NCBI RefSeq assembly: GCF_003116135.1
Contig: NZ_PDOA01000010.1
Coordinates: 62,001 to 126,000, forward strand
Reading direction: 5' to 3'
Length of the DNA stretch: 64,000 bases
Origin: Teichococcus aestuarii
GTDB taxonomy: Bacteria; Pseudomonadota; Alphaproteobacteria; Acetobacterales; Acetobacteraceae
Part shown: positions 29,854 to 57,044 of the stretch, piece by piece
How the letters are laid out: each line of letters opens with the position of its first letter
Numbering within the stretch: position 1 is the first letter of the stretch
Made by a program: the position numbers and the translations under genes
Notes under the pieces: generated by a model
Seen by the model: only the letters and a program-made list of their open reading frames with translations
Told to the model about the DNA's origin: nothing
Databases searched by the model: none

Positions 29854-29857
29854 GTGC

Positions 29858-30898
29858 TCAGGGCCGGAAGTTATGGTGGCGGTCGCTGCGGCGGGTACGG
29901 CCGCGCAGGCGGGTCTTTTCGGGTCCCGTGTCGATGGTAGGCCCGACTGCCTCGGGGAAGGCGGGGCGCTCCGCCGTCCACACTGCCGACTTGCCGTATG
30001 CTTTCACCAGGTGGGCGTAGGTCAGCCTGTCCGCCTTCCCGGCCGCGACGTCGTAGACGGCCTCCGCAGCGGCGGTCTCGATGAGGGTCGCCATGTCGCC
30101 GAGATATCCCGATGCGGCACGGCACAGCGGATAGGCCATCTTGGCTCCTGCGAGGCCGGACAGCACGCCGAAGACGTTGTCCCGGAGGAACTCATCCCAT
30201 TCCATCAACACGTCCTGCAGGAATTCGCGGCTTTCGGCGATGTCCCAGTCCAGCGGCAGGAGTTCGTGCCGGATGCTCGCCCGCCTTCGGAATTCCGCGT
30301 CGGCCTCCCTGAGCAGTAGGACGGATGCCGTACCGGCGATGATGAGGGACGGTCCGCCCTTGGCGTTCACGATGTACCGGCAGAGACTCGCGATGCGCTT
30401 GATGGCAGCGGTGTCCTTGCCTTCGAGGCACTGGCTGAACTCGTCAGCGACGACGAGCCTGTTCCCCACTTCGCGTCCTACTGCGACAATGTCCTCCTGG
30501 ATGACGAGGCGCTTCCGGCCCCGACCTACGACGTGATCGATGCTCTGGCCGGTCAGCGCGGCGAACCAGACCTCGGCGACGTCCTTCTCGCTTCCGTTCG
30601 GCGCTTTGAAGTACAACACGTCTTTGCGGTCAGCGAATGCGCCATCCGGGCCAGCGATGGCTCGGGGTTGGTCGGGGAACTGGCTGGTGTAGTCCAGGAC
30701 GAGCTTTGACTTGCCGCTGCCTGACCCCCCGACAAGGAGAAGGATGCCAGCCTCGCCAGACGACCCATGGTCGCGGTGGTGGAGGCGACGAATATCTCGC
30801 TGGATTTCGTCCGACTTGTCAGTCGGCAGGTAGAGCTCGCGGAACCTGCCCGAGAGCCTGACGAGACGGTCGATTTCGTTCTGGTCCATGGTGCTCAT
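29858..30898 (-). CDS. tnsC: TnsC/TniB-type AAA+ transposition regulator
   Basis: ATPase that links target selection (TniQ) to the transposase. 346 residues: Walker A GGSGSGKSK at 57-65 and Walker B LVVADEF with Asp152 and Glu153. A sensor-like region LIIAGTASVLLL and an alpha-helical C-terminal domain ending in a basic tail (RLRGRTRRSDRHH) follow. The start at 30898 overlaps the tnsB stop by 4 bases (ATGA). Size and order between tnsB and tniQ fit Tn7-like elements. Confidence 0.9.
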   Translation of the reverse strand: MSTMDQNEIDRLVRLSGRFRELYLPTDKSDEIQRDIRRLHHRDHGSSGEAGILLLVGGSGSGKSKLVLDYTSQFPDQPRAIAGPDGAFADRKDVLYFKAPNGSEKDVAEVWFAALTGQSIDHVVGRGRKRLVIQEDIVAVGREVGNRLVVADEFSQCLEGKDTAAIKRIASLCRYIVNAKGGPSLIIAGTASVLLLREADAEFRRRASIRHELLPLDWDIAESREFLQDVLMEWDEFLRDNVFGVLSGLAGAKMAYPLCRAASGYLGDMATLIETAAAEAVYDVAAGKADRLTYAHLVKAYGKSAVWTAERPAFPEAVGPTIDTGPEKTRLRGRTRRSDRHHNFRP

Positions 30899-33138
30899 TG
30901 CCCTTCGTCGCCGCGCATGCGCTTCGCCTGCCGCCGCGGACGTGCCGCGCGGCCCTCGTCGCTTGTGTTCTCCGACTTCTCGGGCGCCGCCTGCGGCTCG
31001 CTGGCGTCCGGTTGCGGCTGCACGTCGCCGGTGTCGTCGCCGGACGGCTGGTTGCTGTTCATCATCAGGAAGCGGACCAGGGCATTCCGCTTGAGCTTGG
31101 ACAGCGATTTGCCGCTGGCCAGCAGCCGCGTGGCGTCCTCGAGCAGGGCGGCCTTGAGGGCCCGCAATTCGTCGGTGTCGTAGGTCCGCTCCAGGCGCCT
31201 ATTGAATTTGAGAGTGATGTCGTGCTGGTGAAGGGTGAGACCGACCATCAGGCGACGATTGAAGGGTTCGACCTTTGCGATCGCACCCGTGAATGGGTTG
31301 ACGACCCAGGCTTGCGACACATCGTGCTCGTCGAAGAGGACCTGGATTTTCGTGCCTTTGCGGTAGTTCGGGTTGGCGACGATCTGCCGGATGGCCTCGC
31401 CGTGCCACGTGAGACCTTGGGTGGTGACCCTTCCGCGCAGCGGCAGGCACATGTGCCGGTGGGTGAGCAGCACAGTCAGGTCGTGCTCGCTGCGGAGTGC
31501 CCGGGGCGGGTGCCTGTCCGTGTGCTCCTGCCAGCGGCGAAGGGGCACGTCGTCGATCCCAGTGTGCCACGACTTGGCGTAGACCATGGCGACCCAGGTC
31601 CAGAGGCGACGCACGAGGTCGGAGTACCGGATGATGGCATCCGGCTTCTCGGGGTCGTTATCCTCGCGGTGGCTGGGCGGGTTGGGTCCCGCAAGCGGCC
31701 GCTCCGCCTGTTCGCGGAAGTTCCGGATGAAGCGCTCGATGCACGCCTTGAGCTGCGGGTTCTCGCCCTCGGCGTAGTCCATGATCATGTCCAGGACCAG
31801 GGACGCGTTGCGCACGTGGTCATTATTCGTCGCCGCGGCCTGGTCGAAGAAGAACGACATCGGAACGCCGGTCGGGAACTCGTAGTCGAGGTTCGGTACG
31901 AGCTTCTTGAGGAAGCCCTTGGGCGTCATCGTCATCCGCAGGACGCTGAACCCGATGCCGAGGGTCTCGCCCGCGAAATGGACGATCAGCGCGAGCGGCA
32001 TGCGGGTGAAGTGGTCGTAGGCGATGGAGACCCAGGCGCCGCCCATGTCCAGGCCGCTCCGGTCGTCCAGCACCCTGATCCGCCGCAGGCGGAAGTGATC
32101 GACCTCGACACGCTCCAGCGGGAACGTCGTGACCACACCGTTGCCGATGGTGCGGACCTTGTCGAACTCCTTCTTGCCCTTGCGACGGCGGACGGCGACG
32201 TGCTGGTCAACTTCCTCGCGGATATAGCGGGCCACCTGGCTTTCGCTCGGACACCAGAGCTGGTTGTCCGGGTTCGCCGTGTTCCAGTTCGTCACCCGGT
32301 CGTTGAGCGCGCTCCAGACCTTCGACTTGCGGTTTTCCTGCCGCGTGAGCCAGACTAGTGTGATGGTCTCGATCAGCCACTGCTCGACCATAGCGGGCAT
32401 CTTGCGCCCCCGCGGTCCCTGCCTGTCGAAGCGGGGCGCGAGGGCGCGGATGTCCCCGCCTGCCTGCTTCAACGTGTTGAGCCAGCCGTAGAACGTGCTG
32501 ACGCCCGGGGCTTTCTGCCCGGTCGCCTTCGCGACCTGTTTCAGGAAGGCGAGGAGGGTCGCCTTGGAGACGCGGCCGCTGAGGTCGATGCGCTCGGCGA
32601 CGGGGAGGTCCGGCATCCTCTCGCGGTAGAAGCGCTCCGGGTCACGGTACGCCTCCACGAAAACGGCGCTCCACTGCACCTTGGCTTTCATCGAGCTCGG
32701 CAAGCCGTCGAGCGGGACGCGGAGCACTTCCCGGATGCGCTCCGGCAGGTCCGCGTCAGGTGAATCGACGACCCAGCTCTCGCCGCGCCAGCACTCCTCC
32801 TGCCAGGCGATGTTGTTGACGACGGCGGTCTCGTCGGTCTTGACATTCTCCAGGTGGATCAGGCCGCTCTTGAACAGCTTCACGCGCCAGACGCTGCCCT
32901 GGCGGCGGATGTAGGTGCCGCGGACGAGGCGCCGCCGGTCCAGCGGCTCCGGGACGGTTGGCTGGCGCAGGCTGCCGTTCTGCCAGTGCAGGATCCAGGA
33001 GGCGAGGCCCCAGGTCAGGACCTCGCCGGTCATCCGGTTGCGCAGGTCGAGGCCGTCGTTGTCGAGGCGCTCCACCATCCACGGGTGGCCGTCCCAACGG
33101 ACGATCTGGCCCAGTCGGGGCAGGTATCGGTTGCTCAT
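30895..33138 (-). CDS. tnsB: TnsB-type DDE transposase
   Basis: Binds the transposon ends and joins them to target DNA. 747 residues. The catalytic triad is readable: Asp347 in LERVEVDHF, Asp432 in MSFFFDQAA and Glu468 in KACIERF, with 35 residues between the last two, as in the Mu/TnsB group. N-terminal DNA-binding domains precede, including KATLLAFLKQVAKATG, and a disordered basic tail (RPRRQAKRMRG) follows, which in TnsB contacts TnsC. The start at 33138 overlaps the tnsA stop (ATGA); a GTG at 33147 is an alternative. Confidence 0.92.
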   Translation of the reverse strand: MSNRYLPRLGQIVRWDGHPWMVERLDNDGLDLRNRMTGEVLTWGLASWILHWQNGSLRQPTVPEPLDRRRLVRGTYIRRQGSVWRVKLFKSGLIHLENVKTDETAVVNNIAWQEECWRGESWVVDSPDADLPERIREVLRVPLDGLPSSMKAKVQWSAVFVEAYRDPERFYRERMPDLPVAERIDLSGRVSKATLLAFLKQVAKATGQKAPGVSTFYGWLNTLKQAGGDIRALAPRFDRQGPRGRKMPAMVEQWLIETITLVWLTRQENRKSKVWSALNDRVTNWNTANPDNQLWCPSESQVARYIREEVDQHVAVRRRKGKKEFDKVRTIGNGVVTTFPLERVEVDHFRLRRIRVLDDRSGLDMGGAWVSIAYDHFTRMPLALIVHFAGETLGIGFSVLRMTMTPKGFLKKLVPNLDYEFPTGVPMSFFFDQAAATNNDHVRNASLVLDMIMDYAEGENPQLKACIERFIRNFREQAERPLAGPNPPSHREDNDPEKPDAIIRYSDLVRRLWTWVAMVYAKSWHTGIDDVPLRRWQEHTDRHPPRALRSEHDLTVLLTHRHMCLPLRGRVTTQGLTWHGEAIRQIVANPNYRKGTKIQVLFDEHDVSQAWVVNPFTGAIAKVEPFNRRLMVGLTLHQHDITLKFNRRLERTYDTDELRALKAALLEDATRLLASGKSLSKLKRNALVRFLMMNSNQPSGDDTGDVQPQPDASEPQAAPEKSENTSDEGRAARPRRQAKRMRGDEGQ

Positions 33139-33899
33139 GTGCGCCACCCCTTAGTCCGCCAGGCCAACACGGGGGTGTCCGGTCCGAGCCCGGCCGAGAT
33201 GTCGGCAACCACGAACCCGTTCGCGACCATGGACAGCAGTTGATGCCAGGTGGCGAGGCCATCCAGCAGCCGGTGCAACTCCCCAAGGGTGGCAGGGGCG
33301 TGACGCTCGGCCACGGTCGACACCGAGAAGGGCAGGGAGTCCGGCCACTGCCAGTAGCGGTAATAGAACAGGTCCTTGGCACCGGGCAGCGCGACGTCCT
33401 CGGTGACCTCGTCGCGGTTCAGGTGAACGAAGCCAAGACCCTGGCGCTCGCAGGCCGCGCGCATGGCGGCGAGGCGCTTCTTGCGGCGCGCGTCCGGCTT
33501 GGCCAGCGGGTGCAGGATTGTCAGCGCGTAGGAGCGCGTCTCCTCATGCACGATGAAGTCGGGGACGAATTTGAAGTCCTTGCATTCCCAGTGGACTTCG
33601 ATGGCCTCGGCTGTGGAGGTCCAGCCCAGCACCTCGTGCCGGGCGTCCAAGAGGAACGCGGCGTCGCGATGGTGATAACTCCGCAGGTGCTCGTAACGCC
33701 GCTTGCCCTTGGCTGGCGGGTAGTAAGTCGGGACCTGTGTCCGAGCCTTCGGTTGGTCCTGCTCTTCTTCCTTGGGTTCCTCGCCCCCGGCTTCCTTGCT
33801 GACAATCTTGCCTTTGGCCTTCCCCTTGGGGGGCTTGGACGGGAATTTGGGGTTCCAGTTGCCGCGCGTCGGCACTGCCCCCAATGCGAATCTGCGCAT
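33135..33899 (-). CDS. tnsA: TnsA-like endonuclease subunit with degenerate active site
   Basis: In Tn7, TnsA cuts the 5' ends so that transposition is cut-and-paste. This 254-residue protein stands in the tnsA position and shares the RYEHLRSYHHRDAAF and FKFVPDFIVHEE segments (Asp114). The expected second motif, normally ExK or QxK, reads YALTILHPLAK, and the early glutamate is not evident. Catalysis may therefore be lost, or the family is divergent. A basic, disordered N terminus of about 60 residues precedes the domain. The ATG at 33899 is preferred over an in-frame TTG at 33911. Confidence 0.75.
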   Translation of the reverse strand: MRRFALGAVPTRGNWNPKFPSKPPKGKAKGKIVSKEAGGEEPKEEEQDQPKARTQVPTYYPPAKGKRRYEHLRSYHHRDAAFLLDARHEVLGWTSTAEAIEVHWECKDFKFVPDFIVHEETRSYALTILHPLAKPDARRKKRLAAMRAACERQGLGFVHLNRDEVTEDVALPGAKDLFYYRYWQWPDSLPFSVSTVAERHAPATLGELHRLLDGLATWHQLLSMVANGFVVADISAGLGPDTPVLAWRTKGWRT

Positions 33900-33947
33900 C
33901 GTGGCTTCCAATCGTTTGAGCGTTCGGGATGCCGCCGGTGGGCGGCG

Positions 33948-34079: not shown

Positions 34080-34276
34080 GATGTCCTCAGCGGTGAGGCC
34101 AGGAAAGCTGCAGGCGGGCACAGCGACGTGGGCGCCGTGCCGCAAATCCTCAGTCCGTGGCTATTCGCTTCGTGGAGATCATGGCTGCAGAGACGGCTGG
34201 CGCCTGGATTGGTTTCGCGCCCCCTTGCCATTTTCATGGACGGCTCTGGCGAGGCGTCCGGGTCGGGGCCGGTCAT
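33971..34276 (-). CDS. Short frame coupled to the protease gene, possibly truncated by the transposon
   Basis: The ATG at 34276 overlaps the stop of the protease gene (ATGA) and has GGAGG upstream, so translation is likely to start here. The first residues (MTGPDPDASPEPSMKMARG) look natural, but the remainder turns Ser/Arg-rich and low in sense. One reading is that a downstream partner gene was cut when the Tn7-like element landed somewhere between 34000 and 34200. Confidence 0.35.
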   Translation of the reverse strand: MTGPDPDASPEPSMKMARGRETNPGASRLCSHDLHEANSHGLRICGTAPTSLCPPAAFLASPLRTSCTTTNPLRRRRRGARRRVARAASFQASGPSSGSPP

Positions 34277-36489
34277 GGCCGCACCCTCCGGGGGCGGCGA
34301 CCGGCGCCTGGCGGTCGGCAATCCTTCGCGGCCGCCCCGGACGCCGCGACCAGGGCCTCGATCTCGGCGCCCGGCACCGTCTCCTTGGCGACCAGCATGT
34401 CCGCCAGACGGCAGATGGCCAGGCCGTGGTGCCGGACCACCGACCGCGTCTCGGCGTAGGCCGCGTCCAGCATCTCGCCGACCCGGCGCGCGACGTCGGG
34501 CCGCGCCGCCAGCAGCGCGGGGACACCGGCCGCCTCCGGCAAGCCGCGCCAGACCAGGGCGCCACCGCCCTTGTCGAGGCCGAGCGCGGTCACCGCCGCC
34601 GTCGCGAGGCGCGTCGCCGTGGCGAGGTCGCTCTCGGCGCCGCCGCCGCTCCCGCCCGATGCCTCGCCGAGCAGCTCCTCCTCGGCCGCCCGGCCCGCCA
34701 GCGCCTCGCGCAGCAATGTTGACAGGGCCGCACGGGTGACCGTGGCCTGGCCATCCGCAGGCTCCGTCCATAGCACCCGGCCCGCGCGGTCGCCCTGCGC
34801 CAGCACGGTGGCCGAGATCAGGGCACCGGGCCGCCCAAGCGCCGCCACCACCGCGTGCCCGGCCTCGTGGATGGCCACGCGGCGCAGCACCTCCGGAGCC
34901 GGGCGCGACCCCTTGCCGCGCAGCTCCGCCTCCAGGTCGGCCAGGGTCGGCTCGCGCCGGTCGTGCCGCGCCCGCCGTCGCATGCCGCGCACCCAGCGCT
35001 CGGCCTCGGCGCCGGTGGACCCGAGGCCCAGCAGCGCGAGACGCGACAGGTCGGCGCCGGGCAGGTCGCCGCCGAGGTGGTGGCGCAGGATGGCGGCCAG
35101 TGCCGCCTGGTCCGGCAGCGGCACCCCAATCAGGCGCTCCAGGCGGCCCGGCCGCAGGATGGCCGGGTCGATGCGGCTGGCGTCGTTGCAGCAGCCCAGC
35201 ACGACCACGCCCTCGCGCCCGGCGGCGCCGTCCAGTTCCTCGAGGAAGGCGTTGACCACCTGGACCGAGTAGTCGCGGTCGTGGTGGCGGAAGGTGGTGC
35301 GGTTGCCGAAGCTGTCGATCTCGTCCACGAGCAGGATGCAAGGCGCCGCCTTGCGCGCCGCCTCGAAGGTCCCGCGCATGGCGCCGAGGGTCGTGCCGAG
35401 GTGGCCGTCCTTGGCGCCCTGCCACTGGCCCAGCGAGCCGGTCACCAGCGGCACCCCGCATTGCGCCGCCAGCGCCCTGGCGAAGGTCGTCTTGCCGGTG
35501 CCGGTGGGACCGACCAGCACGGCGCCGCGGTCCACGTCGCGCCACGGCAACGCGCCGCGGGCGTAGTCGGTGAGATCCCGCGCGACGTCCTTGCCCCACC
35601 GCGCGGCCTCGTCCATCCCGTGCAGGCCGTCGAGCGTCAGCGGGCGGACGGAGAGCCGCTGCGACGCCAGCTCCGCCAGCCGCCGGAGGTAGTCGTCGGC
35701 ATCCTGGTGGGGCAGCCGGGCCAGCCACAGGTCACCGACGGTGACCAGCCGCGCCACCTCCGGCGGTACGGACGCGGTGACCGGCGCGGCGCCCGTCAAC
35801 ATGGTCGCCGCCTCGGCCAGCGCGGCCGGATCCAGCGGGCCGACGGTCACCGTCGCCGTGGCGGCCCGCAGCAGATCGGATGGCAGGCAGCGGGCGGGCG
35901 CCGGGCTGAAGCCGTAGACCGGGCGCCCGCTGGCGACCATGGTGCGGACGGCGCCGTTGCCGTCCTCGGGGCGGTGCCAGCGGTCGGAGCCGTCGCGGCG
36001 GAACTCGGCCCAGCTCGGCTCAATCTTGCTGATCCGCCGGTATGGCCGGTCCTGGGCGTCGTCGCCGTCGAACGGTACCTCGTCCGTGCCCTGGATCAGC
36101 ATGCGCCAGGTCTCGGCGACGGGGACGACCCACTCGGCGTCCGGCACCTCGACCACGAGGACCGCGCCCGGCTCCCGCGCCCTGCCGTGCAGGGTCGGAT
36201 CGGCCTCGAGCAGGCGCCGGAGCATGGCGTGGGCTGCGGCCTCGGCAGGGTCTTCCAGGCGCACGCGCGATGGCTGGTGGACGGGCGGGGGCGTTGGCTT
36301 CCGCGCCTGCGGCGGAACGGGACCGAGGTGGAACGGCTCGTGGCCGATCTCCTCCTCGACGGCTTCGGCCAGCCCTTCGATAGCGAGGTCCAGCGCGTCG
36401 CCGGTCAGGGCGGCGGCGCCACCCATGCTGCCGGGCGGCAGGGCAGGTGAGGGGGCGGATGCGGAGATGCTGGGGATGGGGTTTGGCAT
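34273..36489 (-). CDS. AAA+ zinc metalloprotease, FtsH-like but without membrane anchors
   Basis: 738 residues. Parts in order: a Pro/Ala-rich N terminus, an accessory region, an AAA+ domain with Walker A VGPTGTGKTT and Walker B ILLVDEIDSFGNRTTF, an arginine-finger-like region AILRPGRLER, and an M41 peptidase with the zinc motif HEAGHAVVAAL. No transmembrane segment is visible, unlike FtsH, so it is presumably soluble. It starts 4 bases after a small gene (36494-36865), forming a two-gene unit. Such soluble proteases recur in accessory regions of related genomes; the substrate is unknown. Confidence 0.85.
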   Translation of the reverse strand: MPNPIPSISASAPSPALPPGSMGGAAALTGDALDLAIEGLAEAVEEEIGHEPFHLGPVPPQARKPTPPPVHQPSRVRLEDPAEAAAHAMLRRLLEADPTLHGRAREPGAVLVVEVPDAEWVVPVAETWRMLIQGTDEVPFDGDDAQDRPYRRISKIEPSWAEFRRDGSDRWHRPEDGNGAVRTMVASGRPVYGFSPAPARCLPSDLLRAATATVTVGPLDPAALAEAATMLTGAAPVTASVPPEVARLVTVGDLWLARLPHQDADDYLRRLAELASQRLSVRPLTLDGLHGMDEAARWGKDVARDLTDYARGALPWRDVDRGAVLVGPTGTGKTTFARALAAQCGVPLVTGSLGQWQGAKDGHLGTTLGAMRGTFEAARKAAPCILLVDEIDSFGNRTTFRHHDRDYSVQVVNAFLEELDGAAGREGVVVLGCCNDASRIDPAILRPGRLERLIGVPLPDQAALAAILRHHLGGDLPGADLSRLALLGLGSTGAEAERWVRGMRRRARHDRREPTLADLEAELRGKGSRPAPEVLRRVAIHEAGHAVVAALGRPGALISATVLAQGDRAGRVLWTEPADGQATVTRAALSTLLREALAGRAAEEELLGEASGGSGGGAESDLATATRLATAAVTALGLDKGGGALVWRGLPEAAGVPALLAARPDVARRVGEMLDAAYAETRSVVRHHGLAICRLADMLVAKETVPGAEIEALVAASGAAAKDCRPPGAGRRPRRVRP

Positions 36490-36493
36490 GGTG

Positions 36494-36865
36494 TCACCGC
36501 AGGCCCAGGGAGCAGGTCCGGTCGGCGGGCGGCGGCACGACCGGCATGGGCGCGCGCGGGGCGCCGAGGCGATAGAGGCGGTTCAACGTTCGCGCCCAGC
36601 CCACGGTCGGCGCGAAGGCCCAAAGGTCTGAGGTCCGGCAGTAGGGGCCGTCCAGCAGCGGATGGCCGGTGACGGCGCCGACAAGGCACATGACCGGGCG
36701 CGAGGTCACGGCCCATCCCTCCAGCAGCGGCGCCTCCGACAGCTCCGCCGCCGACGGCATCCCGGCCGCCGCGAGCCGCCGCAGGTCCGCCGCCAGTGCC
36801 TCCAGCCTGCTGGCTTCCGCCTCGACGTCGCCGCGCACGGTTCCTCGTTCACCGATGATGAGCAT
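36494..36865 (-). CDS. Small protein paired with the protease (DUF6634-like)
   Basis: 123 residues. A helical N terminus (VEAEASRLEALAADLRRLAAAGMPS) is followed by APLLEGWAVTSRPVMCLVGAVTGHPLLDG and GWARTLNRLYRLG. From memory this resembles the DUF6634 family of small accessory-genome proteins; function unknown. The 4-base spacing to the protease start suggests that the two products act together, for example as adaptor and protease. That role is inference. Confidence 0.6.
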   Translation of the reverse strand: MLIIGERGTVRGDVEAEASRLEALAADLRRLAAAGMPSAAELSEAPLLEGWAVTSRPVMCLVGAVTGHPLLDGPYCRTSDLWAFAPTVGWARTLNRLYRLGAPRAPMPVVPPPADRTCSLGLR

Positions 36866-37563: not shown

Positions 37564-39348
37564 TCAACCACCCTGTCGGCGCAGGTTCGCGTCCAGCTGA
37601 GTGTACCGGGGATCCGTGCTCAGATCCGGATTGGCGTCCAAGACGCGTCTCAGCAGGCGGCGTAGCCCCAGCCCATCCCAGGAGTTCCCCAAGCCATCTG
37701 TAATCGCGTCGAGTAGCTTCAGAACGTCATTTGGGAACCGCTCGGGGAGGTCGTTCTCGGCCAAGTTGTGGACAAGGCGGAAGTGCTGGTTGCACCGGAC
37801 CACCGTGCCCGCGATCAGGTCCACGGCCAGCGGGAAAGCCTCCCCGCTAGCGGCTGCCGCCAGTGCGAGGTTTTCGGAACTGCCCGCGTCGCGCAGGCCG
37901 ACATCCTTGGGCCAGGCTTCGTCGATCCAGGGGCCAAGTCGGGCTTCCCAGAAAGCCGCCGCCTTCGCCGCGTCATCCGGCATCATGCGGTACAACTGGA
38001 ACGCGGCGTGGCGGCGTGCCTCCGGATCTGCCGACCGGAGCAGGGATTGGGCTTCCTTTGCCTCGATGAGACCGGGAACCTCGATGCACGCCATCACCAA
38101 AAGCGACCAGAGCTGCTCCTTCGAGCGGTGCACCTCGCTGTCGTGATGGCGCAGCGTATCCAGGAGATCGTCCTTGAGCGCCGACAAGACCTTGGGGTGA
38201 ATGGAACCCCCGGCGATGAAGCCCTTCCACAGGGCCGCGGCCTCGCGGGGTACCGTCCAGCTGAACTTCGGGACCAAGTGCTGCTGCGCCCAGTCCTGCT
38301 GTGTCATGAACAGGGCGGTCAGGTGGCGCGCCAGGATCACGCGTCCAAGCAGAAAGCCGTCCCCGCCGCCGGACGTCACCTGACGCAGGCGTAGTTCCGC
38401 CTCCGCCGGAATGCCCTGGCCCACTTTCGGTTGGTAGGCAAAGAAGCGGTGCAGGAGCGCCTCGGTCAGGCGCCCCGGCGGCTCGTTGATCGCGGCGTCC
38501 AGGGGGCTGGTATCCGGGCCGAGAGAGACAGGTAGCGCGAAGAAGATCGGAGCCAGCCGGTCCCAGAGCTGCCAGAAAAGGTCGGCCGGATCCGCTGCGG
38601 TTACTCGCGTGGCTCCCGGAAGCCAGTACCCGATGGCCCAGGCGACTTCCCGGTTCTGGAGGAACGAGTCCGGCGCCTGGAGCAGGAGGGGAGCCATTCG
38701 GCGGAACAGGGCGGCCTTGGCACAACCCCGCTTCATCCCGCTGAAGGCAACCAGCGTGGCCTGCCAGGTGTCACCCGGCCAAATCCCCCGGGCCGCGAGC
38801 TGCTCGAGCACCCTCGCAGCCGCCTTTGGCCGTGACGGAACCACCTCGCCCCAGAGCGCCATCAGGGATTCTCGCGTGTCGTCGAAGGCGCGGTGCTGGC
38901 GGACGGCGGGCTCTTGCAGGAGCGAGACGAGCTCCTCCAGCTTCAGCGCGCGCATCTCCCTCTCCGACACGCCCGCGCGATCAGGCACGCCCAGGCGTTC
39001 GAACTCGAACCCGAGCCTCACCGACGACGGCGCTTCCACGGGGCCGTGCGCCGCCTCGTAGGCCGCAAGGAGAGCGGATGCTTCGGGCGGCAGCGGTCTG
39101 TCGCCCGCGTCGCGCATCTCGGCCAGCCTCGAGGCGAGCTGCCACGCCCGCCGGTCGGCATCCTCGACATCTGGTGGACCGGCGACAGCCCTCCCGGCCA
39201 GCCGGGCGGCGCTTTCCTCGGGCAGTTCCCGCCAGAGCCGCCCCAGGAGGCGCATGCTTTCCGGTTCGTGACGCCTTGACCACAGGATGTCGCCGGACAG
39301 CAGGTAGTCGAGACCTGCCGCCAAGCGCGCTTCAGACTGCGTAGGCAT
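37564..39348 (-). CDS. Large helical protein, C-terminal half of a Dsr1-like defence sirtuin
   Basis: 594 residues from the ATG at 39348, with no enzymatic motif. Mostly helical, HEAT-like: LLGRLWRELPEESAARLAGRAVAG, EVAWAIGYWLPGATRV and ADPEARRHAAFQLYRMM. Its start lies inside the end of the SIR2 gene, in the +1 frame. Read across the overlap, SIR2 ...QRMALDAYA runs smoothly into QSEARLAAGLDYLLSGDILW, and the joined length (about 1,250) equals that of single-chain defence sirtuins of the Dsr1 kind. So this is either a naturally separate sensor subunit or the second half of a frameshifted gene. Confidence 0.72.
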   Translation of the reverse strand: MPTQSEARLAAGLDYLLSGDILWSRRHEPESMRLLGRLWRELPEESAARLAGRAVAGPPDVEDADRRAWQLASRLAEMRDAGDRPLPPEASALLAAYEAAHGPVEAPSSVRLGFEFERLGVPDRAGVSEREMRALKLEELVSLLQEPAVRQHRAFDDTRESLMALWGEVVPSRPKAAARVLEQLAARGIWPGDTWQATLVAFSGMKRGCAKAALFRRMAPLLLQAPDSFLQNREVAWAIGYWLPGATRVTAADPADLFWQLWDRLAPIFFALPVSLGPDTSPLDAAINEPPGRLTEALLHRFFAYQPKVGQGIPAEAELRLRQVTSGGGDGFLLGRVILARHLTALFMTQQDWAQQHLVPKFSWTVPREAAALWKGFIAGGSIHPKVLSALKDDLLDTLRHHDSEVHRSKEQLWSLLVMACIEVPGLIEAKEAQSLLRSADPEARRHAAFQLYRMMPDDAAKAAAFWEARLGPWIDEAWPKDVGLRDAGSSENLALAAAASGEAFPLAVDLIAGTVVRCNQHFRLVHNLAENDLPERFPNDVLKLLDAITDGLGNSWDGLGLRRLLRRVLDANPDLSTDPRYTQLDANLRRQGG

Positions 39349-41308
39349 CGAGAGCCATCCTCTGAAACAGGACGTAAGGGAGCGCCCGCCAGCGGAGCAG
39401 AAGGGCATCCGCCGCCTGGGCGTTCGTTTCCCTCAACGCCTCCATCGAATCCCGCGTCACGTCGATCAACCGCGTCCAGTCCTCGTAACCACGGGCCTCG
39501 GGGCCGGGTCGGACCGGGCGGTACATGACAGGGAGCGGATCGCTGGTTTCGCCCGCCTGCCCCACCAGGGCAAACAGGTCGAGCGCGCGCTTCAGCTGGC
39601 TGGTCAGGTCATCCGCCACCGCCGCGAGAAAGGCCGTCCGGCCCCGGACTGCCTCGAGCAGGGATTCGAGCATGTCGCCGCAGGCCAGCTCGATGTCGAT
39701 GGCGACGTGGTCTCCAGCCGTTGGCAGACGGAAGGAGGCGGTTCCTCCAGGAGGCGACACACTCGGCTCGAAAAACGGATGGGTGCGCTTGATCCGTGGG
39801 ATAGGGGCCATCATCCGCGTGAAGTCCTGCCGGGTGACATGGTCGTCCGCCCCGCCCTTGAGGCGCGTCCAGCACGCATGAACGTCCGCGAGGTCCGCCA
39901 TGGGCGCGCGGGCCATAGGATGCGCGACCAGGCGCCAGGCCGCCTCCAACCCGGTGTCGAGATGAGGTTTCTCGTTCGGCTTCGCGACGGCACCCGGCGC
40001 GGCGGCGGGTTCATCCAAGCGGTCCAAGATCGCCGTCTGCAGGGCGGGGTGAGGGCTGCCACCTTTCAGCACCCAGTCGAGCAGCTCCGGCTTGTCCAGG
40101 TGCCGCGTCAGCCAGACCATCAGCTGGAAGTGGGTTGGCGAGACCCAGCGTGCCGCCACGTCCTGGGCGGTCTGGGACACCGACGCACCCGTCGCGGGGA
40201 GGCTTGCGCGCACGCCGAGGAGTTGCCACTCCTCGAGCACCGGCAGCCATTGGATCGGGGCAGGCACCTCGGCCTTGGCGAAGCTGAGAACGGCAGCCGG
40301 TTCCTCCAGCGCCCAGCGCACCGCCTCCACCTCGTGATCGACGGAGTAGGGGGGGACCGGGATGATGTCGGAGGCCCGCTCGGCCGCACGGATGCGTGCC
40401 GTGAGCCCGAACTTCTTCCGCTGCCCCCACTCGGCGAGGGTGTCGTAGAGCAGCGAGTGGTCGTGATTGGGCGCCGCGTACGGGATGGGCTCGACGCCCT
40501 TCGCGCGCCACGCCTCCTCCTCCTGGGCCATGGCCGTCGGATCCTGGTAGGGCGCGAATGCCCAGGCTCGTGGCGACGGTTTGGCTGATGACCCAGCAAG
40601 CTGACGCTCGGCGGCGAAGGCGTCCATCAGGTAGCGCATCACCGGGTCGTCGACGCTGTATCCCACGAACAGCACCGGGTACTTGGTGAACAGGTCGGTG
40701 ACGAACCGACTGGCCCAGCGCTCGGTGAGGTATGCCAGCCCGAAGTCGCCGGTGCTGTAGACCAGTGACTGCACCGACGTGTGCTCGCCCGTGGCGCCGG
40801 GTGCGATCTTGCCGTGAAGGTAGGCGACGCTGCGCCAACGGTGCTGCTTCGGCACGGGCAGCATGGGCGCGACGTCGTTGGTGACCTCGTAGCCCAGGGC
40901 CTTGGCAGCATGGTCGAACTGCGGGTCGAAGTTGGTGGTCACCATGCGGAAGCCGCCGTCCCGCAGCCGGGCCAACTCGAGCACCGCCTTGTGGCGTTCG
41001 AACGGCGCCGTGACCGTCAGCACGTCGACAACCGCCTGCCGCACCCGGTTTCGGCCCAGGCGCTGCTCCAGCAGGTGTAGGGCGCGATCGTACTGGTACC
41101 CCGTGAGGGCAGCCTGCTCCTGGTCATTTAGGACCTGCCGCAGCGCCCCCGTGACGCTGTTCACCAGTTGGCTGAAGGAAGGCATTCCGGCGACGCCGGG
41201 CCCGGTGGACATGGACACACCTGCTCCGCAGAACAGGACCAGTTCCTCGTCCTCCAGGGCGCGCCGGACGGCGTCGGGGATGTCAGGGCCGTCGGCCACG
41301 AAGCGCAT
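39332..41308 (-). CDS. SIR2-domain NADase, anti-phage (Dsr1-like)
   Basis: 658 residues. The SIR2 fold is clear: LVLFCGAGVSMS (28-32), the NAD-binding TTNFD (124-128), YLHG with His165, and VLFVGYSVDDPVMRYLM. SIR2 proteins of this group deplete NAD when phage infection is sensed, so infected cells stop growth. The C-terminal 350 residues are helical and end LLRWRALPYVLFQRMALDAYAV. The gene overlaps the next gene by 17 bases in a different frame. A PIN-domain gene diverges from it upstream. Enzyme type is well supported; defence role is inference from family and context. Confidence 0.85.
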   Translation of the reverse strand: MRFVADGPDIPDAVRRALEDEELVLFCGAGVSMSTGPGVAGMPSFSQLVNSVTGALRQVLNDQEQAALTGYQYDRALHLLEQRLGRNRVRQAVVDVLTVTAPFERHKAVLELARLRDGGFRMVTTNFDPQFDHAAKALGYEVTNDVAPMLPVPKQHRWRSVAYLHGKIAPGATGEHTSVQSLVYSTGDFGLAYLTERWASRFVTDLFTKYPVLFVGYSVDDPVMRYLMDAFAAERQLAGSSAKPSPRAWAFAPYQDPTAMAQEEEAWRAKGVEPIPYAAPNHDHSLLYDTLAEWGQRKKFGLTARIRAAERASDIIPVPPYSVDHEVEAVRWALEEPAAVLSFAKAEVPAPIQWLPVLEEWQLLGVRASLPATGASVSQTAQDVAARWVSPTHFQLMVWLTRHLDKPELLDWVLKGGSPHPALQTAILDRLDEPAAAPGAVAKPNEKPHLDTGLEAAWRLVAHPMARAPMADLADVHACWTRLKGGADDHVTRQDFTRMMAPIPRIKRTHPFFEPSVSPPGGTASFRLPTAGDHVAIDIELACGDMLESLLEAVRGRTAFLAAVADDLTSQLKRALDLFALVGQAGETSDPLPVMYRPVRPGPEARGYEDWTRLIDVTRDSMEALRETNAQAADALLLRWRALPYVLFQRMALDAYAV

Positions 41309-41578
41309 GGTTACATCCGGTCCCGCCGCGCGCGGGCCTGCCCACCGGCGGGCAGCGGCGCCCGGCGGCGTGCTCCGTCAACAATACAACAAGGATTCAA
41401 ACCCGGGAGCCCCCACCATCACGACGTGCGTCGTGGCGGGCGTGGCGCCTTGCTGATCCCGGTGACGAGCCTTCTGAAACGTGAAACACCGGCTGGATCG
41501 CAGCCGAGAAACGAGGCAGATTCCATGGCAGCGCAGTTGCGGCTTCCAGTCGCCGGACGCTGCCGCCGGAGCTCGCCC
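41309..41578. promoter_or_regulatory. Shared divergent promoter region of the SIR2 and PIN genes
   Basis: 270 bases between divergently read genes. The segment 41376-41404 (CAACAATACAACAAGG and neighbours) is locally AT-rich and could hold a promoter. A GATTCAAACCC at 41394 recalls a tRNA T-loop, but the stem does not pair. An upstream in-frame ATG for the PIN gene lies at 41525. Confidence 0.4.
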
Positions 41579-43255
41579 ATGATCGTCTTCCCCGACACCA
41601 ACTTCTTCCTGCACCACCAAGATCCGGCAGCTATCCCGTGGGCGCAGATCACTGGGGACGACCACATCAGACTGGTGATCTGCCGCAACACCGCTCGGGA
41701 ACTTGACAAGAAGAAGTTCGAGCTACAGGGGCGCCCGCAGAAGAGGGCGCGCAAGTACGCGGCTGTCATCGCCGAGGTGGTGGAGACGAAGCAGCCGGTG
41801 GAGCTGCGGGCCGCCGATCCAAGGGTGACCCTTGAGATGGCGCCACCGCGCCCTGGGGCTTGGGCAGTGCCGCCTGACCTGGAGGCTCCCTTCATCCTTG
41901 GGGATGATGCCTTCGTCGCCGATGTCTTGCACTTCCGCGACGTGATCGGCGAGGACTGCACCGTCCTCACCGCCGACAGCGGGCCTCTCGAAAAGGCGGC
42001 GGGCCACGGTCTGCCGGTGGTGCGTACCACGCGACCGGGCTGGCAACTGCCCGACGAGCCGGACACGCGCGACAAGCGGATCAAGGAGCTGGAAAGGCGC
42101 CTGGAGGAGATGGAGGGCGATGGTCCAGCCATCGCGGTCGAGGTGCGCCTGCAAGATGCCCCAGCTAGGGTCGTTCCGCTTGATGTGGTGCGATACCCGG
42201 TCCTGGCCGAGGAACGGGTAGAGGCTCTGCTGGCGGAACTCCAGGCTCGACACCCGCGGGTGGTCGAGTTCCCCAGGCCAACCGAGGCGGACGAAAAGGA
42301 TCCGTTCACACCTGCCGCAGGCCAGCCCTTCGACCTCGCGGAACTCGAGGGACCGTTCGACTGGGTTGGGCCGACGGAGAAGCAGCTCGCCACCTACAAC
42401 ACCGCGTACGACACCTGGCTTGAAGAGGCACGCGCCCTCATCGACAACCTGCCGAAGCAGCGGCAGCGGCCGGAGTTCGACGCATCATTCAAATTCTGCC
42501 TGGAGAACGTCGGTGTCGCTGCCGCAGAAGGTGTTCGGGTATCCCTGGAGGCAACAGCCGGACTGCTTCTCAAGGATCTCGATGATGGTCCCAAGAAGAA
42601 GGCGGCGGGGAAGGCAAATGCTGTTGCGCAGCCTGTTCCGACGTCGCTCCGGCCGCCGCCCAAAGCCCCCGGCTGGCGTAAAATCTACCGAGAGGTGGCC
42701 CAGCCGACCCCGGACACTGTGAAGCCGAACAGGACGATGTCAGTTCTCGAGGCCATGCGCATTGCCGAGGCGGGCGGCGCATACGGATCCGCTTTGGCGG
42801 AGCACGAACGCATGCAGAAGATCATGCGGGATGCCGGTCTTGGGCCCCTGCCGGGAATGCCTGGCTTGCACGGTAGCGAGATGCTCAGCGGCTTGGGCTA
42901 CCGCAGTCCAATGGAGGAGTTGCGAGTTCCCGTGGATTCCTTGTTCCCGCGCCAACCCAAACCGCGGGATCCGGAGGATTTCTACTGGCGAGGTGGAGCG
43001 CCTGTACGCCTGCAGGCGCGATGGGATCTCGAATGCGAGCTTCTCCGCCATCACGTCCAACCGAGGGTATGGACGCAGGCCGTGGTGGCGCGGCTCGACC
43101 GCCTCCCCGGAAACGGCGGCTCGATCCGGGTTGAGGTGCATGCACGGAACCTGAAGCGGCCATTTACGAGGGACGTGCCGGTGCGCATCTCAGTGCGCGA
43201 TGAGGACACCGAGGCTCTGGTACGCGCAGCGCTTTTCGGCCCTTCAACTGGGTGA
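41579..43255 (+). CDS. PIN-domain protein with a long C-terminal region
   Basis: 558 residues. The N-terminal PIN nuclease reads MIVFPDTNFFLHHQ (Asp6), CRNTARELDKKKFE, GDDAFVADVLHFRD and DCTVLTADSGPLEKA, giving the full set of acidic metal ligands. The middle and C-terminal parts are unassigned: a coiled coil KRIKELERRLEEMEG, then AFDLAELEGPFDWVGPTEKQL-like acidic sequence and a beta-rich end with IRVEVHARNLKRPFTRDVPVRISV. GGAG stands 8 bases before the ATG at 41579. Divergent from the SIR2 gene; a single functional module is possible. The RNA or other target is unknown. Confidence 0.78.
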   Translation: MIVFPDTNFFLHHQDPAAIPWAQITGDDHIRLVICRNTARELDKKKFELQGRPQKRARKYAAVIAEVVETKQPVELRAADPRVTLEMAPPRPGAWAVPPDLEAPFILGDDAFVADVLHFRDVIGEDCTVLTADSGPLEKAAGHGLPVVRTTRPGWQLPDEPDTRDKRIKELERRLEEMEGDGPAIAVEVRLQDAPARVVPLDVVRYPVLAEERVEALLAELQARHPRVVEFPRPTEADEKDPFTPAAGQPFDLAELEGPFDWVGPTEKQLATYNTAYDTWLEEARALIDNLPKQRQRPEFDASFKFCLENVGVAAAEGVRVSLEATAGLLLKDLDDGPKKKAAGKANAVAQPVPTSLRPPPKAPGWRKIYREVAQPTPDTVKPNRTMSVLEAMRIAEAGGAYGSALAEHERMQKIMRDAGLGPLPGMPGLHGSEMLSGLGYRSPMEELRVPVDSLFPRQPKPRDPEDFYWRGGAPVRLQARWDLECELLRHHVQPRVWTQAVVARLDRLPGNGGSIRVEVHARNLKRPFTRDVPVRISVRDEDTEALVRAALFGPSTG

Positions 43256-43295
43256 AGGGGCGGCTTCCCTAGAGGTGCCGCTTCCTAGCCTCCAA

Positions 43296-43622
43296 TCACC
43301 AACCGCGTTCGTAGCGCGGGCCATAACCTTGCTGGTGCCGCCACGCCCGGCGTTGCTCGCGTTCCTGCTCGATGCGCCAGGCTTCGCGCCGCGCGGCCTC
43401 GGCGATGAGGGCCTCGTCCCGCTCCCGGCGCCACTCCCGCCACTGCTGGCGCCGCTCCCAGTTGCCGTCGTACGGCCGCTGGTCCCAGTACTGCACGGTC
43501 TGGGCAGCGGCTGGCGGGGCAGCCAGGATGCTGGCGGCAGGGGCCGCGGACGCGTTGTGCGCCGCCAGCGTGAGCAGACTCGCTGTCATTGCGGCTGCTG
43601 CCGCCACTACGATCCGACGCAT
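43296..43622 (-). CDS. Small secreted protein
   Basis: 108 residues with a Sec signal peptide (MRRIVVAAAAAMTASLLTLAAHNASA). The mature part is rich in Arg, Trp, Gln and Tyr: YWDQRPYDGNWERRQQWREW, then EREQRRAWRHQQGYGPRYERGW. GGAGG precedes the start, so the gene is probably real. Proteins of this composition are common and unassigned in related bacteria. It lies between the PIN gene and the CoiA-like gene, pointing the other way. Confidence 0.7.
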   Translation of the reverse strand: MRRIVVAAAAAMTASLLTLAAHNASAAPAASILAAPPAAAQTVQYWDQRPYDGNWERRQQWREWRRERDEALIAEAARREAWRIEQEREQRRAWRHQQGYGPRYERGW

Positions 43623-43805
43623 CTGAACCTCCACGGTGGGATGCCGAGGCTGGCAAAGTCGCAGGACAGCTTGTCGGCTGTTGGGCTGAACGATGGCCTC
43701 CGCGGGGCAGCCAAAGCCATCGCGGGGGCCGACCTGCTCGTCCGGCGGGGCTCCGAACCAGCGAGTTGATGCTATGCTGCCGCCTCCCCGAAGCTCACCG
43801 GCGCC

Positions 43806-45767
43806 ATGGACGGACCAACCAGCTGCCAGCCTCCCGCGATGCATGACTTGGACAGGGACGGCACCCGGCTCCCCTACGGCTTGGCCGAGGATGGCCGCCT
43901 GGCCCACGTGTCGGAGGTGGCCTCGGGGCTGGCGTGCCGGTGCCGCTGCCCAGGCTGCGGCGAGCGGCTGGTGGCCCGCAAGGGTGCCATCAAGGTCCAC
44001 CACTTCGCCCACCACGTGGACCGCGCTTGCGTCGGCGCATGGGAAACCACCCTGCACCGGCTGGCCAAGGAGATCGTGCTGGAAGCCCGCGACATCCTCC
44101 TGCCGGACGCGGTGGCCGAGGTCGACGGCCTGCGCCAGGACGTCGCCTTCGCCACCGTCTTCCCCTACGAGGCGGCGGAGGCCGAGGTCGACATGGGTGG
44201 CCTGCGGCCCGATGCCGTCATCCGCGGCCGGGGCAGGGAGCTGCTCCTCGAGTTCCACGTCCGCCATCCCTGCGGCCCCGAGAAGCTGGCCCTCCTGCGG
44301 GAGCGGAACCTGCCCGCGGTCGAGATAGACCTCTCCCGTGTTCCCCGGCACGCCTCCCGTGCCGAGCACGCCGAGCATGTCCTGCGCGCGGCGCCCCGCC
44401 ACTGGCTGCACAACGCCAAGGTCGCCGTTGAGGAGGAGCGCCTGCGGCGCATCGCGGCGGAGCGGGCGGCAGTCGAGAAGCGGCGCTTGCAGCGGCTCCA
44501 TGGCCGGATCGCCGACGAGATCGCGGGCGCCTGGGTTGAGCCGGTGAGCCCTGGCCACTCCAGCTGGCGCATCAGGGCCGTGGACGCTGGCTTCGGCGGG
44601 TTCGTCGGCCGGGCCGTCCCCGGTGACGGATGCTTCGCGGTAGTCGCCGAGACGTGGCAGGCGGCGTTCCTGGACCATGTCGCCATTGGCGCCGCTGGCC
44701 ACTGGGTGACGGGCGACGCCGCGCTCAGGACCCTCCAGAAGCGGCAGATGCTCAAGGCGCCGTTCCAGATCCGGCGGAACTGGGAGCCGGAGCTGGTCGC
44801 GCACATCCAGGAGCGCGTGCCGGGCTTCCGCCCGCCCCACGAGGTCATCGCCGACTACGCCGACTGGCTGGCGGAGCGCGGCCTGCTGATGCGCGTCCGC
44901 CAGGGCTGGGTGGCCGCCCAGACCGTCGGGTGGGAAGCCAGGCAGCGGATGGAGGCGGCGAGTGAGGCGAGGCGCCGCCAAGGTGAACTCCAGGACAAGC
45001 TGGGCACCATGCTGAAGGCGGCTGGGCTGCCCTGGGCGGACACGGCAGGCTGGCTGGAGAGGGCTGTCCCCGAGTTCGGTGCGGTGCCTCGTGTGCTGGC
45101 CGAGGAGGGCGGCGAGGGCTTCGGGCGCCTCATGCGAAGGCTCGATGAGCTCGAGAGGATGGTCCAGCCGCAAGCCAGTCCGTACGAGGGCGGCTTGCTG
45201 GGCCTGCCGCTGGATGCGGTGCGGCTGAGGCGCCGGGACGAGGCGCGTGCCCGGCAGGAGGCCGCACGCCTCGAGCGCGAGGAGTTCGCGCGGCAGGCTG
45301 CGGAACGCCGCCGCCAAGAGTCAGGGGACTTCGTGGGCACCCTGATGACACGAGCCGTCGCCTTGATGGGTCAACATGCGGGCACGACCTGGGTCTGTGA
45401 TGCGGTCAGCGCCGCAACCGGGCTGCCCCTCGACGAGGGGCAGTTCGCCCTGGACTGGCAGGCGAGGAACCGCATCAGCGAGGCGATGGCGGGCGAGCGG
45501 GACCGCATCATGGCGACCCGGGAAGCCGAGAGGCGCCGCCTCGACAAGGAGGCGGAGGCTGCCGCCGTTGTGGCAGGCTGCCGGAGCAGGCTGGAGGCGG
45601 AGGTGATGGCCCGCTTCCCCGGTCAGCCGGACTGGGCGCACATGTGGCTACGCGGCAAGCACCCCGCATTGGGCCGGTCGCCCTGGGAACAGTGCGTCGA
45701 CGAACGGACGCTCGAACGCTGCAGGAGCCTGCTCGATGCGGCGCGGCCTAAGGGCAGGCGGCGGTAA
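43806..45767 (+). CDS. CoiA-like protein with zinc-ribbon and nuclease-like core
   Basis: 653 residues. The N-terminal motif CRCPGCGERLVARKGAIKVHHFAHHVDRAC is the zinc/HFAH signature of the CoiA family, followed by HRLAKEIVLEA and LRPDAVIRGRGRELLLEFHVRHP, a PD-(D/E)xK-like core (Asp, then ExH in place of ExK). The rest is a long helical, Arg/Glu-rich region. CoiA is known from competence, but homologues also occur in accessory regions where their role is unclear. The start is uncertain (43806 or 43839); neither has a clear ribosome site. Confidence 0.7.
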   Translation: MDGPTSCQPPAMHDLDRDGTRLPYGLAEDGRLAHVSEVASGLACRCRCPGCGERLVARKGAIKVHHFAHHVDRACVGAWETTLHRLAKEIVLEARDILLPDAVAEVDGLRQDVAFATVFPYEAAEAEVDMGGLRPDAVIRGRGRELLLEFHVRHPCGPEKLALLRERNLPAVEIDLSRVPRHASRAEHAEHVLRAAPRHWLHNAKVAVEEERLRRIAAERAAVEKRRLQRLHGRIADEIAGAWVEPVSPGHSSWRIRAVDAGFGGFVGRAVPGDGCFAVVAETWQAAFLDHVAIGAAGHWVTGDAALRTLQKRQMLKAPFQIRRNWEPELVAHIQERVPGFRPPHEVIADYADWLAERGLLMRVRQGWVAAQTVGWEARQRMEAASEARRRQGELQDKLGTMLKAAGLPWADTAGWLERAVPEFGAVPRVLAEEGGEGFGRLMRRLDELERMVQPQASPYEGGLLGLPLDAVRLRRRDEARARQEAARLEREEFARQAAERRRQESGDFVGTLMTRAVALMGQHAGTTWVCDAVSAATGLPLDEGQFALDWQARNRISEAMAGERDRIMATREAERRRLDKEAEAAAVVAGCRSRLEAEVMARFPGQPDWAHMWLRGKHPALGRSPWEQCVDERTLERCRSLLDAARPKGRRR

Positions 45768-48454: not shown

Positions 48455-48770
48455 GGCTCCGAATCTTGAATAGATTCCAGGGGGACCGCGCGCCGCCGGT
48501 TCGGCATGCCTTAGTCGGCCAGCGACGAGGTGCGGCGGCAGGCCGAGAAACAGGGTTGACCGCTCTGGGTTCCGCGCACGTCGTTGGCTGCGCGGAGGCT
48601 CCCATCCGGCTTCCGCCAGGCGCGGGCAGGACGGCTGGCAGCCCGCCAGGGCTTCGCTGATGCGCCGTACGCCCGCCATCAACTGGCATCAAATGCCCCT
48701 CCCCCGACGGGGAGAGTTCACGGAACTGAAACAGACAGCTTCTTGGCGAGATGATACGACGTTTCCACAA

Positions 48771-48792
48771 ATATCGAACCGACGTTCGATAT
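48771..48792 (+). promoter_or_regulatory. ArsR-type operator of the second arsenic operon
   Basis: Perfect 9-base arms ATATCGAAC (48771-48779) and GTTCGATAT (48784-48792), separated by four bases, 24 bases before the PstS-like gene. The TCGAA core matches the arsR operator at 17068-17085. Probably bound by the ArsR-ArsC fusion and/or ArsR. Confidence 0.6.
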
Positions 48793-48815
48793 GCGCGAAG
48801 CAGGAGTTCACGGCG

Positions 48816-49940: not shown

Positions 49941-50077
49941 GGGCGATGCGCGGCCGTGACCCCCGAGACCTCGACCCGCCTGCCGCTGGTCGGCGCCCGT
50001 CGGCCGCCGGTGGCGGTGGCTGCGCCGGGCCGCGGCCCGCGGGGGACACGGCCGCGCCGTTCGACTATGGCGACAGC

Positions 50078-50938
50078 ATGGAAGCCACCGAAGCCGCGTC
50101 CGTGTTCTCCGCCCTCGGCCAGGGTTCCCGCCTCGACCTGCTCCGCACCCTGCTGGACGCCGGGCCGGACGGGTTGCCAGCGGGCGTCCTGGCGGAGCGG
50201 CTCGGCATCGTCCCGTCCACGCTGTCCTTCCACCTCAGGGGCCTGGAGCAGGTCGGGCTGATCCGCTCCACGCGGCAGGGGCGCAGCCTCATCTACGCCG
50301 CCCAGATCGACCGGCTGCGGCACGTCGTCACCTTCCTGACCGAGACCTGCTGCGGTGGCCGCCCGGAACTGTGCGGCAGCCTGACTCCGGCACCGGCGGC
50401 AGCACCCCTGCGGGACGGCCCCATGGTCGCCGCCTTCAACGTGCTGTTCCTGTGCACCCGGAACTCGGCCCGCTCGGTCATGGCCGAGGCCATCCTGAAC
50501 AAGCTCGGCGGCGGCCGCTTCCGCGCCTACTCGGCGGGCTCCGATCCGGCGGCGCGGCCAATGGCGGAAGTCCTGCGCAAGCTGGAGAGCCTCGGCCACG
50601 ACGTCTCCGCGGTGCGCAGCAAGTCCTACCGCGAGTTCCAGGGGCCGGACGCGCCGAGGATGGATTTCGTCATCACCCTCTGCGACGAGCTCCAGGGCCA
50701 GCACTGCCCCGACTTCGGCGGGCAGGCCATCACGGCGTCATGGCCGCTGCCCGGCCCCGGCCGCTACGAGGCCGGGTCTCCGGACCGCCAGCTGATGGTC
50801 AACGAGCTCTACGCCAGCCTGCACCGTCGCCTCGGCATCCTCACCAATCTCAAGGTGGACGCGCTCGACCGGCTGTCCCTGCGCCACCGCGTGGACGACC
50901 TCGGCGAATCCCCTCTCACCGTCGCAAGGGAGCGCTGA
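50078..50938 (+). CDS. ArsR-ArsC fusion: repressor joined to a phosphatase-type arsenate reductase
   Basis: 286 residues. Residues 1-100 are an ArsR winged helix ([19 protein letters not shown]) with Cys91, Cys92 and Cys99. Residues from about 118 form a low-molecular-weight phosphatase-type Ars[18 protein letters not shown], with the C-x5-R loop (Cys126 to Arg132) and a redox pair Cys202 and Cys210 ([10 protein letters not shown]), as in thioredoxin-coupled enzymes. One chain thus combines sensor and enzyme. The ATG at 50078 starts the ArsR domain; the frame is open upstream without coding character. The GAPDH gene starts one base after the stop. Confidence 0.9.
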
Positions 50939-50939
50939 C

Positions 50940-57039: not shown

Positions 57040-57044
57040 CAGGG

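What the first reader, a model, noticed from the sequence alone, without database searches (positions are those of the whole stretch)
37564..41308. Dsr1-like defence sirtuin split into two overlapping genes by a +1 shift
Seen: an intact SIR2 gene (39332-41308) ends inside the start of a 594-residue helical gene (start 39348), 17 bases of overlap, second frame +1 to the first. Dropping one base at about 39345 would give one chain of about 1,250 residues, QRMALDAYA running into QSEARLAAG. Known: single-chain SIR2 defence proteins of the Dsr1 kind have this size and an NADase followed by a helical sensor. Inference: either a real two-subunit version, a programmed +1 shift, or a fresh indel.
Basis: partly seen in the sequence, partly recalled or inferred. 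Interest (0 to 1): 0.72.

Follow-up and report, generated by a model that had tools for sequence, protein, structure and literature searches.

The report
Two-gene version of a defence sirtuin
A large bacterial anti-virus enzyme that is normally made as one protein is encoded here as two slightly overlapping genes, and some distant relatives are cut in the same way, so it looks like a real two-part system rather than a broken gene.

Summary
Confirmed: a 658-residue SIR2 gene (39332-41308, minus) overlaps a 594-residue helical gene (37564-39348) by 17 bases in the +1 frame. Together they cover Dsr1 end to end; 47 non-redundant relatives carry this stretch in one open frame. The cut falls in a predicted loop between two helices.

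I read it as a translationally coupled two-gene Dsr1. The junction is letter-identical in two other species' genomes. The downstream ATG has a strong ribosome-binding site (about 0.002 by chance among comparable out-of-frame stops). The downstream product keeps family-conserved residues better than the helical part upstream. Other Dsr1-like loci are cut too, with a start codon at the stop: one from another class at the same loop, others elsewhere, and a related group holding five two-gene loci. Trees need seven label changes for eight split rows. Frames differ (+1, -1, 0), which argues against programmed frameshifting.

Against: the three window-type copies are near-identical, hence one event of unknown age; the start-codon control weakens (p 0.0035 to about 0.05) when two ambiguous loci are reclassified; no expression or phage data exist. 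New variant of a known kind; a 2024 paper calls DSR1 a single-gene system.

The parts
39332..41308 (-). Gene 1: SIR2 NADase domain (about residues 1-300) plus the first part of the helical array, 658 aa
   Evidence: Pfam SIR2_2 E 3.5e-21; NF041818 1-359 and 410-680; GAGVS at 28, TTNFD at 124, LHG at 164, of which N126 and H165 are invariant in an 11-row alignment
37564..39348 (-). Gene 2: rest of the helical array, 594 aa
   Evidence: NF041818 692-1262 E 2.7e-76; AlphaFold2 model mean pLDDT 84.8, pTM 0.71, an all-alpha solenoid
39332..39348 (-). 17-base overlap: ATG of gene 2 to TGA of gene 1
   Evidence: identical in G012 and G193
39349..39364 (-). Shine-Dalgarno-like AGAGGA about 9 bases upstream of the gene 2 ATG, inside gene 1 codons
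   Evidence: sequence; duplex energy -8.1 with a recalled anti-SD; one of only 2 AGG among 50 Arg codons of gene 1

Best explanation
A Dsr1-type anti-phage NADase made as two subunits from two translationally coupled genes. Gene 1 makes the SIR2 NADase with the proximal helical array; ribosomes ending gene 1 (or binding the SD inside its end) start gene 2, which makes the distal helical array. The cut lies in a loop between two helices, so the two products probably stack back into one Dsr1-like solenoid; a phage trigger sensed by the helical part would then open the NADase, as the C-terminal domain does in DSR2. Shown: gene structure, homology, position of the cut, recurrence of such cuts. Inferred: expression of both products, their assembly, the trigger, NAD+ loss.
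For: Complementary Dsr1 matches. 47 non-redundant single-chain relatives cover this stretch in one open frame; alignment through the junction. Same junction in 3 genomes of 17 of the genus, the only three that carry the gene. Gene 2 ATG with SD -8.1; ATG plus SD of -8 or better lies near 0.16% (weighted) of 2266 out-of-frame stops of the same frame in single-chain relatives. Gene 2 keeps 76 of 135 family-conserved residues against 40 of 108 in the helical part before the cut, the highest after/before ratio of 30 rows. Other splits with a start at the stop: L175B at the same loop by ATGA, L175C with GAGGAG and ATG just after a TAG, L108, L109, L087, and the two-gene group L088, L089, L188, L189, L190. 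Shifted splits: 7 of 7 have ATG/GTG near the stop, joint chance 3.4e-4, or 1.3e-3 with L089 left out for shared ancestry; 4 of 7 with SD -5 or better, 1.8e-4, or 3 of 6, 2.4e-3. Eight split rows need 7 label changes in both trees, of which well-supported branches force 5 and 6.
Against: The three window-type copies are 99.6-99.9% identical: one event, and too few substitutions to measure selection (G193: 4 synonymous, 6 non-synonymous over both genes, against about 30% synonymous expected with no selection). The window stands alone on a long branch, so the age of its split is unknown. Start codons near breaks also occur in decayed loci (2 of 8 breaks); Fisher p is 0.0035, but 0.024 if L158 (one in-frame stop, no start) is counted as a split, and about 0.05 by my own arithmetic if L061 (a break near the N-terminus, no start nearby) is counted as well. 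SD is weak (-2.6 to -3.0) in L175B, L108 and L109. The 17-base overlap is longer than the commonest 4 or 1. No transcript, protein or phage data.
Confidence: 0.7

Rival explanations
1. A single-chain Dsr1 gene recently broken by a small indel; gene 1 alone is made and the rest is dying sequence, spread by one mobile block.
For: Window-type copies are one near-identical event. Other Dsr1-like loci are plainly decayed: L035 three pieces, L115 four pieces, L090 two in-frame stops. The window is 2-3 residues shorter than relatives at the loop (my count on the alignment).
Against: Gene 2 is intact over 594 codons and better conserved than the upstream helical part. The ATG plus strong SD at the break is rare by chance. 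The same state persists in three species' genomes. Similar coupled splits occur elsewhere, one at the same loop.
Confidence: 0.2
2. Programmed +1 frameshifting makes a single chain as well as the short gene 1 product.
For: The frames overlap openly for about 77 bases (39332-39408) and homologues are single chains.
Against: Other split loci need +1, -1 or no shift, so there is no shared shift site; L175C is cut by an in-frame stop followed by an SD and ATG. No classical shift motif was recognised at the junction by eye (motifs recalled; not tested by a call).
Confidence: 0.07
3. Gene 1 and gene 2 are used separately, with gene 2 a free sensor or regulator rather than part of one complex.
For: Gene 2 is predicted to fold on its own.
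Against: Colinearity with single-chain Dsr1 right across the loop; overlapping genes often encode subunits of one complex (abstract of PMC10666635).
Confidence: 0.03

Closest known systems
Dsr1 (NCBIfam NF041818; PADLOC Dsr1), single-chain anti-phage sirtuin
   Same: Full-length homology across both products; SIR2 domain with conserved catalytic motifs, then a long helical region
   Different: Two overlapping genes instead of one; 441 and 257 bits against a curated cut-off of 1400; about 24-33% identity to single chains over most of the length
DSR2
   Same: SIR2 NADase controlled by a helical C-terminal domain that senses a phage protein (passages of PMC10973363)
   Different: One chain; its C-terminal region has little sequence homology to DSR1 (same paper); no PDB chain of DSR2 was among the listed matches of my models or of the sequence searches
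Thoeris and SPARSA (APAZ-SIR2/Ago)
   Same: SIR2 effector encoded in a two-gene operon (PMC10973363)
   Different: Their second gene is not a continuation of the same solenoid
Two-gene Dsr1-like group found here: L088, L089, L188, L189, L190
   Same: SIR2 gene followed by a coupled helical gene
   Different: Cut directly after the SIR2 domain (about model position 354), not in the middle of the helical array

Membership tests
Dsr1 | N-terminal SIR2 domain with catalytic Asn and His | tested here: met
   Pfam SIR2_2; N126 and H165 invariant in 11 rows
Dsr1 | Homology over the whole Dsr1 length, in order | tested here: met
   NF041818 1-359, 410-680, 692-1262
Dsr1 | Score above the NCBIfam equivalog cut-off (1400 bits) | tested here: not met
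   441 and 257 bits; so it is filed as Dsr1-related, not as Dsr1
Dsr1 | One gene, one chain | tested here: not met
   two overlapping open frames
Dsr1 | Anti-phage activity and NADase | not testable with these tools
   needs bench work
Programmed frameshift genes | Conserved shift site and direction among homologues | tested here: not met
   directions +1, -1 and 0 among split loci
Translationally coupled gene pairs | Start of the second gene at or near the stop of the first | tested here: met
   17-base overlap with ATG and SD -8.1
Translationally coupled gene pairs | Second product made and dependent on translation of the first | not testable with these tools
   needs reporter or profiling data
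Pseudogene | Loss of constraint after the break | tested here: not met
   conserved residues kept 76 of 135 after, 40 of 108 before the cut; substitutions among the three copies too few to test selection directly

The most novel reading that the evidence does not exclude
The Dsr1 helical solenoid can be cut at many of its inter-helix loops and re-formed from separately made halves, and lineages repeatedly evolve and keep such two-gene versions because separate subunits bring an advantage (for example control of effector-to-sensor ratio or exchange of the sensor half under phage pressure).
Probability: 0.25. Interest if true: 0.75.

Novelty: new variant of a known kind. Interest (0 to 1): 0.52.

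Why it matters
Dsr1 is treated as a single-gene system (PMC10973363, passage). Two-gene forms fall below single-chain score cut-offs, so tools that expect one protein may under-count them. Natural cuts at different loops also show which parts of the NADase and the sensor can work as separate pieces, a ready-made dissection of a defence protein for which my sequence search found no solved structure.

Tried and rejected
Selection test on the split copies: too few substitutions. Look for the locus on plasmids and phages: no near DNA match in plasmids for window 28000-50000; no protein match for gene 1 in the phage collection; none with the single protein P0001 in viral contigs, but 26 loci with an alignment query. 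G016 (L035) was first taken for the same split and rejected: it has two breaks, neither at this place. G786 (L086) looked like a gene 2 alone; upstream lies an unrelated open frame, so it is a truncated copy. G1339 (L174) has an 849-residue frame ending near model position 720, but the contig ends 42 bases later: undecided. Fold search of the helical models gives only generic solenoids (importins, condensin, PP2A A subunit), TM-scores at most about 0.5, so no assignment was made.

Rows left out of the 47-gene control and the 55-row trees: near-copies among viral contigs, contig-cut or partial loci, L061, and the decayed loci L035, L115/L152, L090/L081 and L158. Conserved-residue counts used 24 single chains and 6 splits. 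L188-L190 were found after the null test and are not in its counts; they were added to a second, quicker tree: five two-gene loci and two single chains form one group (support 1.0), four of the five form a subgroup (0.87 and 0.91), and the place of L190 against the two single chains is open.

Corrections made while checking: notebook entry 3 calls G1177 a gammaproteobacterium; its class is not named by any search, only that it is of the same phylum and another class. The frame labels are reversed; one search gives them in the right order.

Full report
The observation. Gene 1 (39332-41308, minus, 658 aa) and gene 2 (37564-39348, 594 aa) overlap by 17 bases, gene 2 being +1 to gene 1. Pfam finds SIR2_2 in gene 1 and nothing in gene 2. 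NCBIfam and PADLOC find Dsr1 in both, at complementary positions. Neither product reaches the Dsr1 cut-off of 1400 bits (441 and 257 bits).

Single-chain relatives. By tblastn, plasmid-borne dsr1 genes of Nitrosococcus, Pantoea, Duffyella, Shewanella and others match both products at about 24-33% identity in nearly all cases; in Nitrosococcus halophilus the two matches lie 33 bases apart in one annotated dsr1 gene. Across the genome samples and viral contigs I kept 47 non-redundant single-chain genes whose one open frame covers the family from end to end. The aligned junction reads as one helix end, a short loop and the next helix in relatives; the window stops after the first helix and restarts at the second, 2-3 residues shorter.

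Who carries the window's form. Of 17 genomes of the genus, 3 carry the gene, all with the same junction. The gene region is 99.6-99.9% identical, and a block of tens of kilobases is shared at 98.5-99.8%, so this is one event spread recently. In G193 a contig break lies inside gene 1 (about residue 506), not at the junction. Between the window and G193 the two genes differ by 4 synonymous and 6 non-synonymous codons; with G012 by 1 and 2. That is too few to judge selection.

Is gene 2 alive? At columns conserved in at least 80% of 24 single chains, the window keeps 97 of 136 residues in the SIR2 part, 40 of 108 in the helical part before the cut and 76 of 135 after it. Gene 2 is thus the better kept helical half, and its after/before ratio (1.52) is the highest of the 30 rows. 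Its ATG has a Shine-Dalgarno-like AGAGGA about 9 bases upstream (duplex energy -8.1). As a null I took 3779 out-of-frame stops in the 47 single-chain genes: an ATG with SD -8 or better lies near 0.16% (weighted) of those in the window's frame class, and near none of 231 in genes above 60% GC.

Where the cut lies. An AlphaFold2 model of the second gene of L109 (792 aa, 15-row alignment, mean pLDDT 83.5), which spans this point uncut, shows helix 188-199, loop 200-205, helix 206-222. The window's gene 1 ends at the first helix; the first helix of the gene 2 model (residues 6-17) corresponds to the second. Gene 2 alone is predicted as an all-alpha solenoid, mean pLDDT 84.8, pTM 0.71. Foldseek gives only generic HEAT/ARM-type matches.

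Other cuts. G1177 (L175; same phylum, another class) has three Dsr1 genes in a row: A is a single chain of 1244 aa; B is cut into 647 and 626 aa at the same loop as the window, with an ATGA overlap; C is cut by an in-frame TAG into 707 and 493 aa, with GAGGAG before it and an ATG three bases after it. L108 and L109 (viral contigs) are cut near model position 460, with ATGCTGA and TAATG junctions; L087 near 865-880 with ATGATTGA. G1006, G1015, G1486, G1651 and G1507 carry a SIR2 gene of 406-421 codons (stop to stop) followed by a helical gene of 895-1019 codons (stop to stop); the second gene starts within 20 bases before to 1 base after the stop. L188 and L189 are near relatives (97 and 90% identity), the others about 30-48% in the second gene.

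Statistics. For the seven frame-shifted splits, all have an ATG or GTG near the stop; joint chance 3.4e-4, or 1.3e-3 if L088 and L089 count once. Four of seven have SD -5 or better, chance 1.8e-4, or 2.4e-3 for three of six. In loci classed as decayed, 2 of 8 breaks have such a start; Fisher p 0.0035. That class is my choice: with L158 moved to the splits p is 0.024, and with L061 moved as well it is about 0.05 by my arithmetic. Eight split rows in 55-row trees need 7 label changes in both the SIR2 tree and the C-terminal tree; well-supported branches force at least 5 and 6. The splits are thus mostly independent, and B of G1177 sits beside its own single-chain neighbour A, so the shared loop is convergent. 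The window is alone on a long branch, so its split cannot be dated.

How it probably works. In DSR2 the SIR2 domain alone neither binds the tail tube protein nor cuts NAD+; the helical C-terminal domain binds it and controls the enzyme (PMC10973363, passages). DSR1 is reported to inhibit phage replication without killing the cell (PMC10952713, passages). By analogy, gene 1 is the NADase with the near part of the solenoid and gene 2 the far, sensing part, made together by coupled translation and stacked into one complex. Short overlaps are enriched in genes for subunits of one complex (PMC10666635, abstract), and a start at the upstream stop is the mark used to tell coupling from frameshifting (PMC3711429, passages). 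Expression, assembly and phage protection are inferred here, not shown.

Novelty. Searches of the paper library for Dsr1 with sirtuin, DUF4020, split, gene fission, single-gene and two-gene terms (listings and abstract openings seen) showed no report of a split Dsr1; the library lacks most subscription papers and all bioRxiv preprints. One paper names DSR1 among single-gene systems (PMC10973363). I therefore rate this a new variant of a known kind.

Noticed in passing
window 27988-33911 (minus) and 21615-22649 (minus): Tn7-like transposition genes beside the Dsr1 pair: TniQ (two copies), TniB, a TnsA-like protein (below its cut-off) and by position a TnsB-like protein.
   Followed up: partly
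window 18062-19414 and 48660-61441: Arsenic genes on both sides: ArsB pump, arsenite oxidase large subunit (TIGR02693), ArsR/LMWPc protein, histidine kinase.
   Followed up: no
window 34273-36865 (minus): FtsH-like AAA plus peptidase M41 protein with a DUF6634 gene just upstream, between the transposition genes and the Dsr1 pair.
   Followed up: no
window 41507-45767 (plus): Divergent neighbours: a large protein with a weak PIN_4 match and a CoiA_N protein with a weak Xre/MbcA/ParS C-terminal match.
   Followed up: no
L175 (G1177:C1:19500-34500): Three Dsr1 paralogues in a row in one genome, one single-chain and two split, 40-50% identical to each other.
   Followed up: partly
L088, L089, L188, L189, L190: A Dsr1-like group with a separate SIR2 gene and helical gene, apparently a standing two-gene system.
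   Followed up: partly
L090 (G1095:C3:526500-532500): Dsr1 gene that scores over the family cut-off but holds two in-frame stops.
   Followed up: no
L115 / L152 (IMGVR_UViG_2585427868_000018): Dsr1 on a viral contig in four frame pieces, a decayed copy.
   Followed up: no
window 57045-58475 (minus): DUF4365 protein of 476 aa, E 1.7e-37.
   Followed up: no
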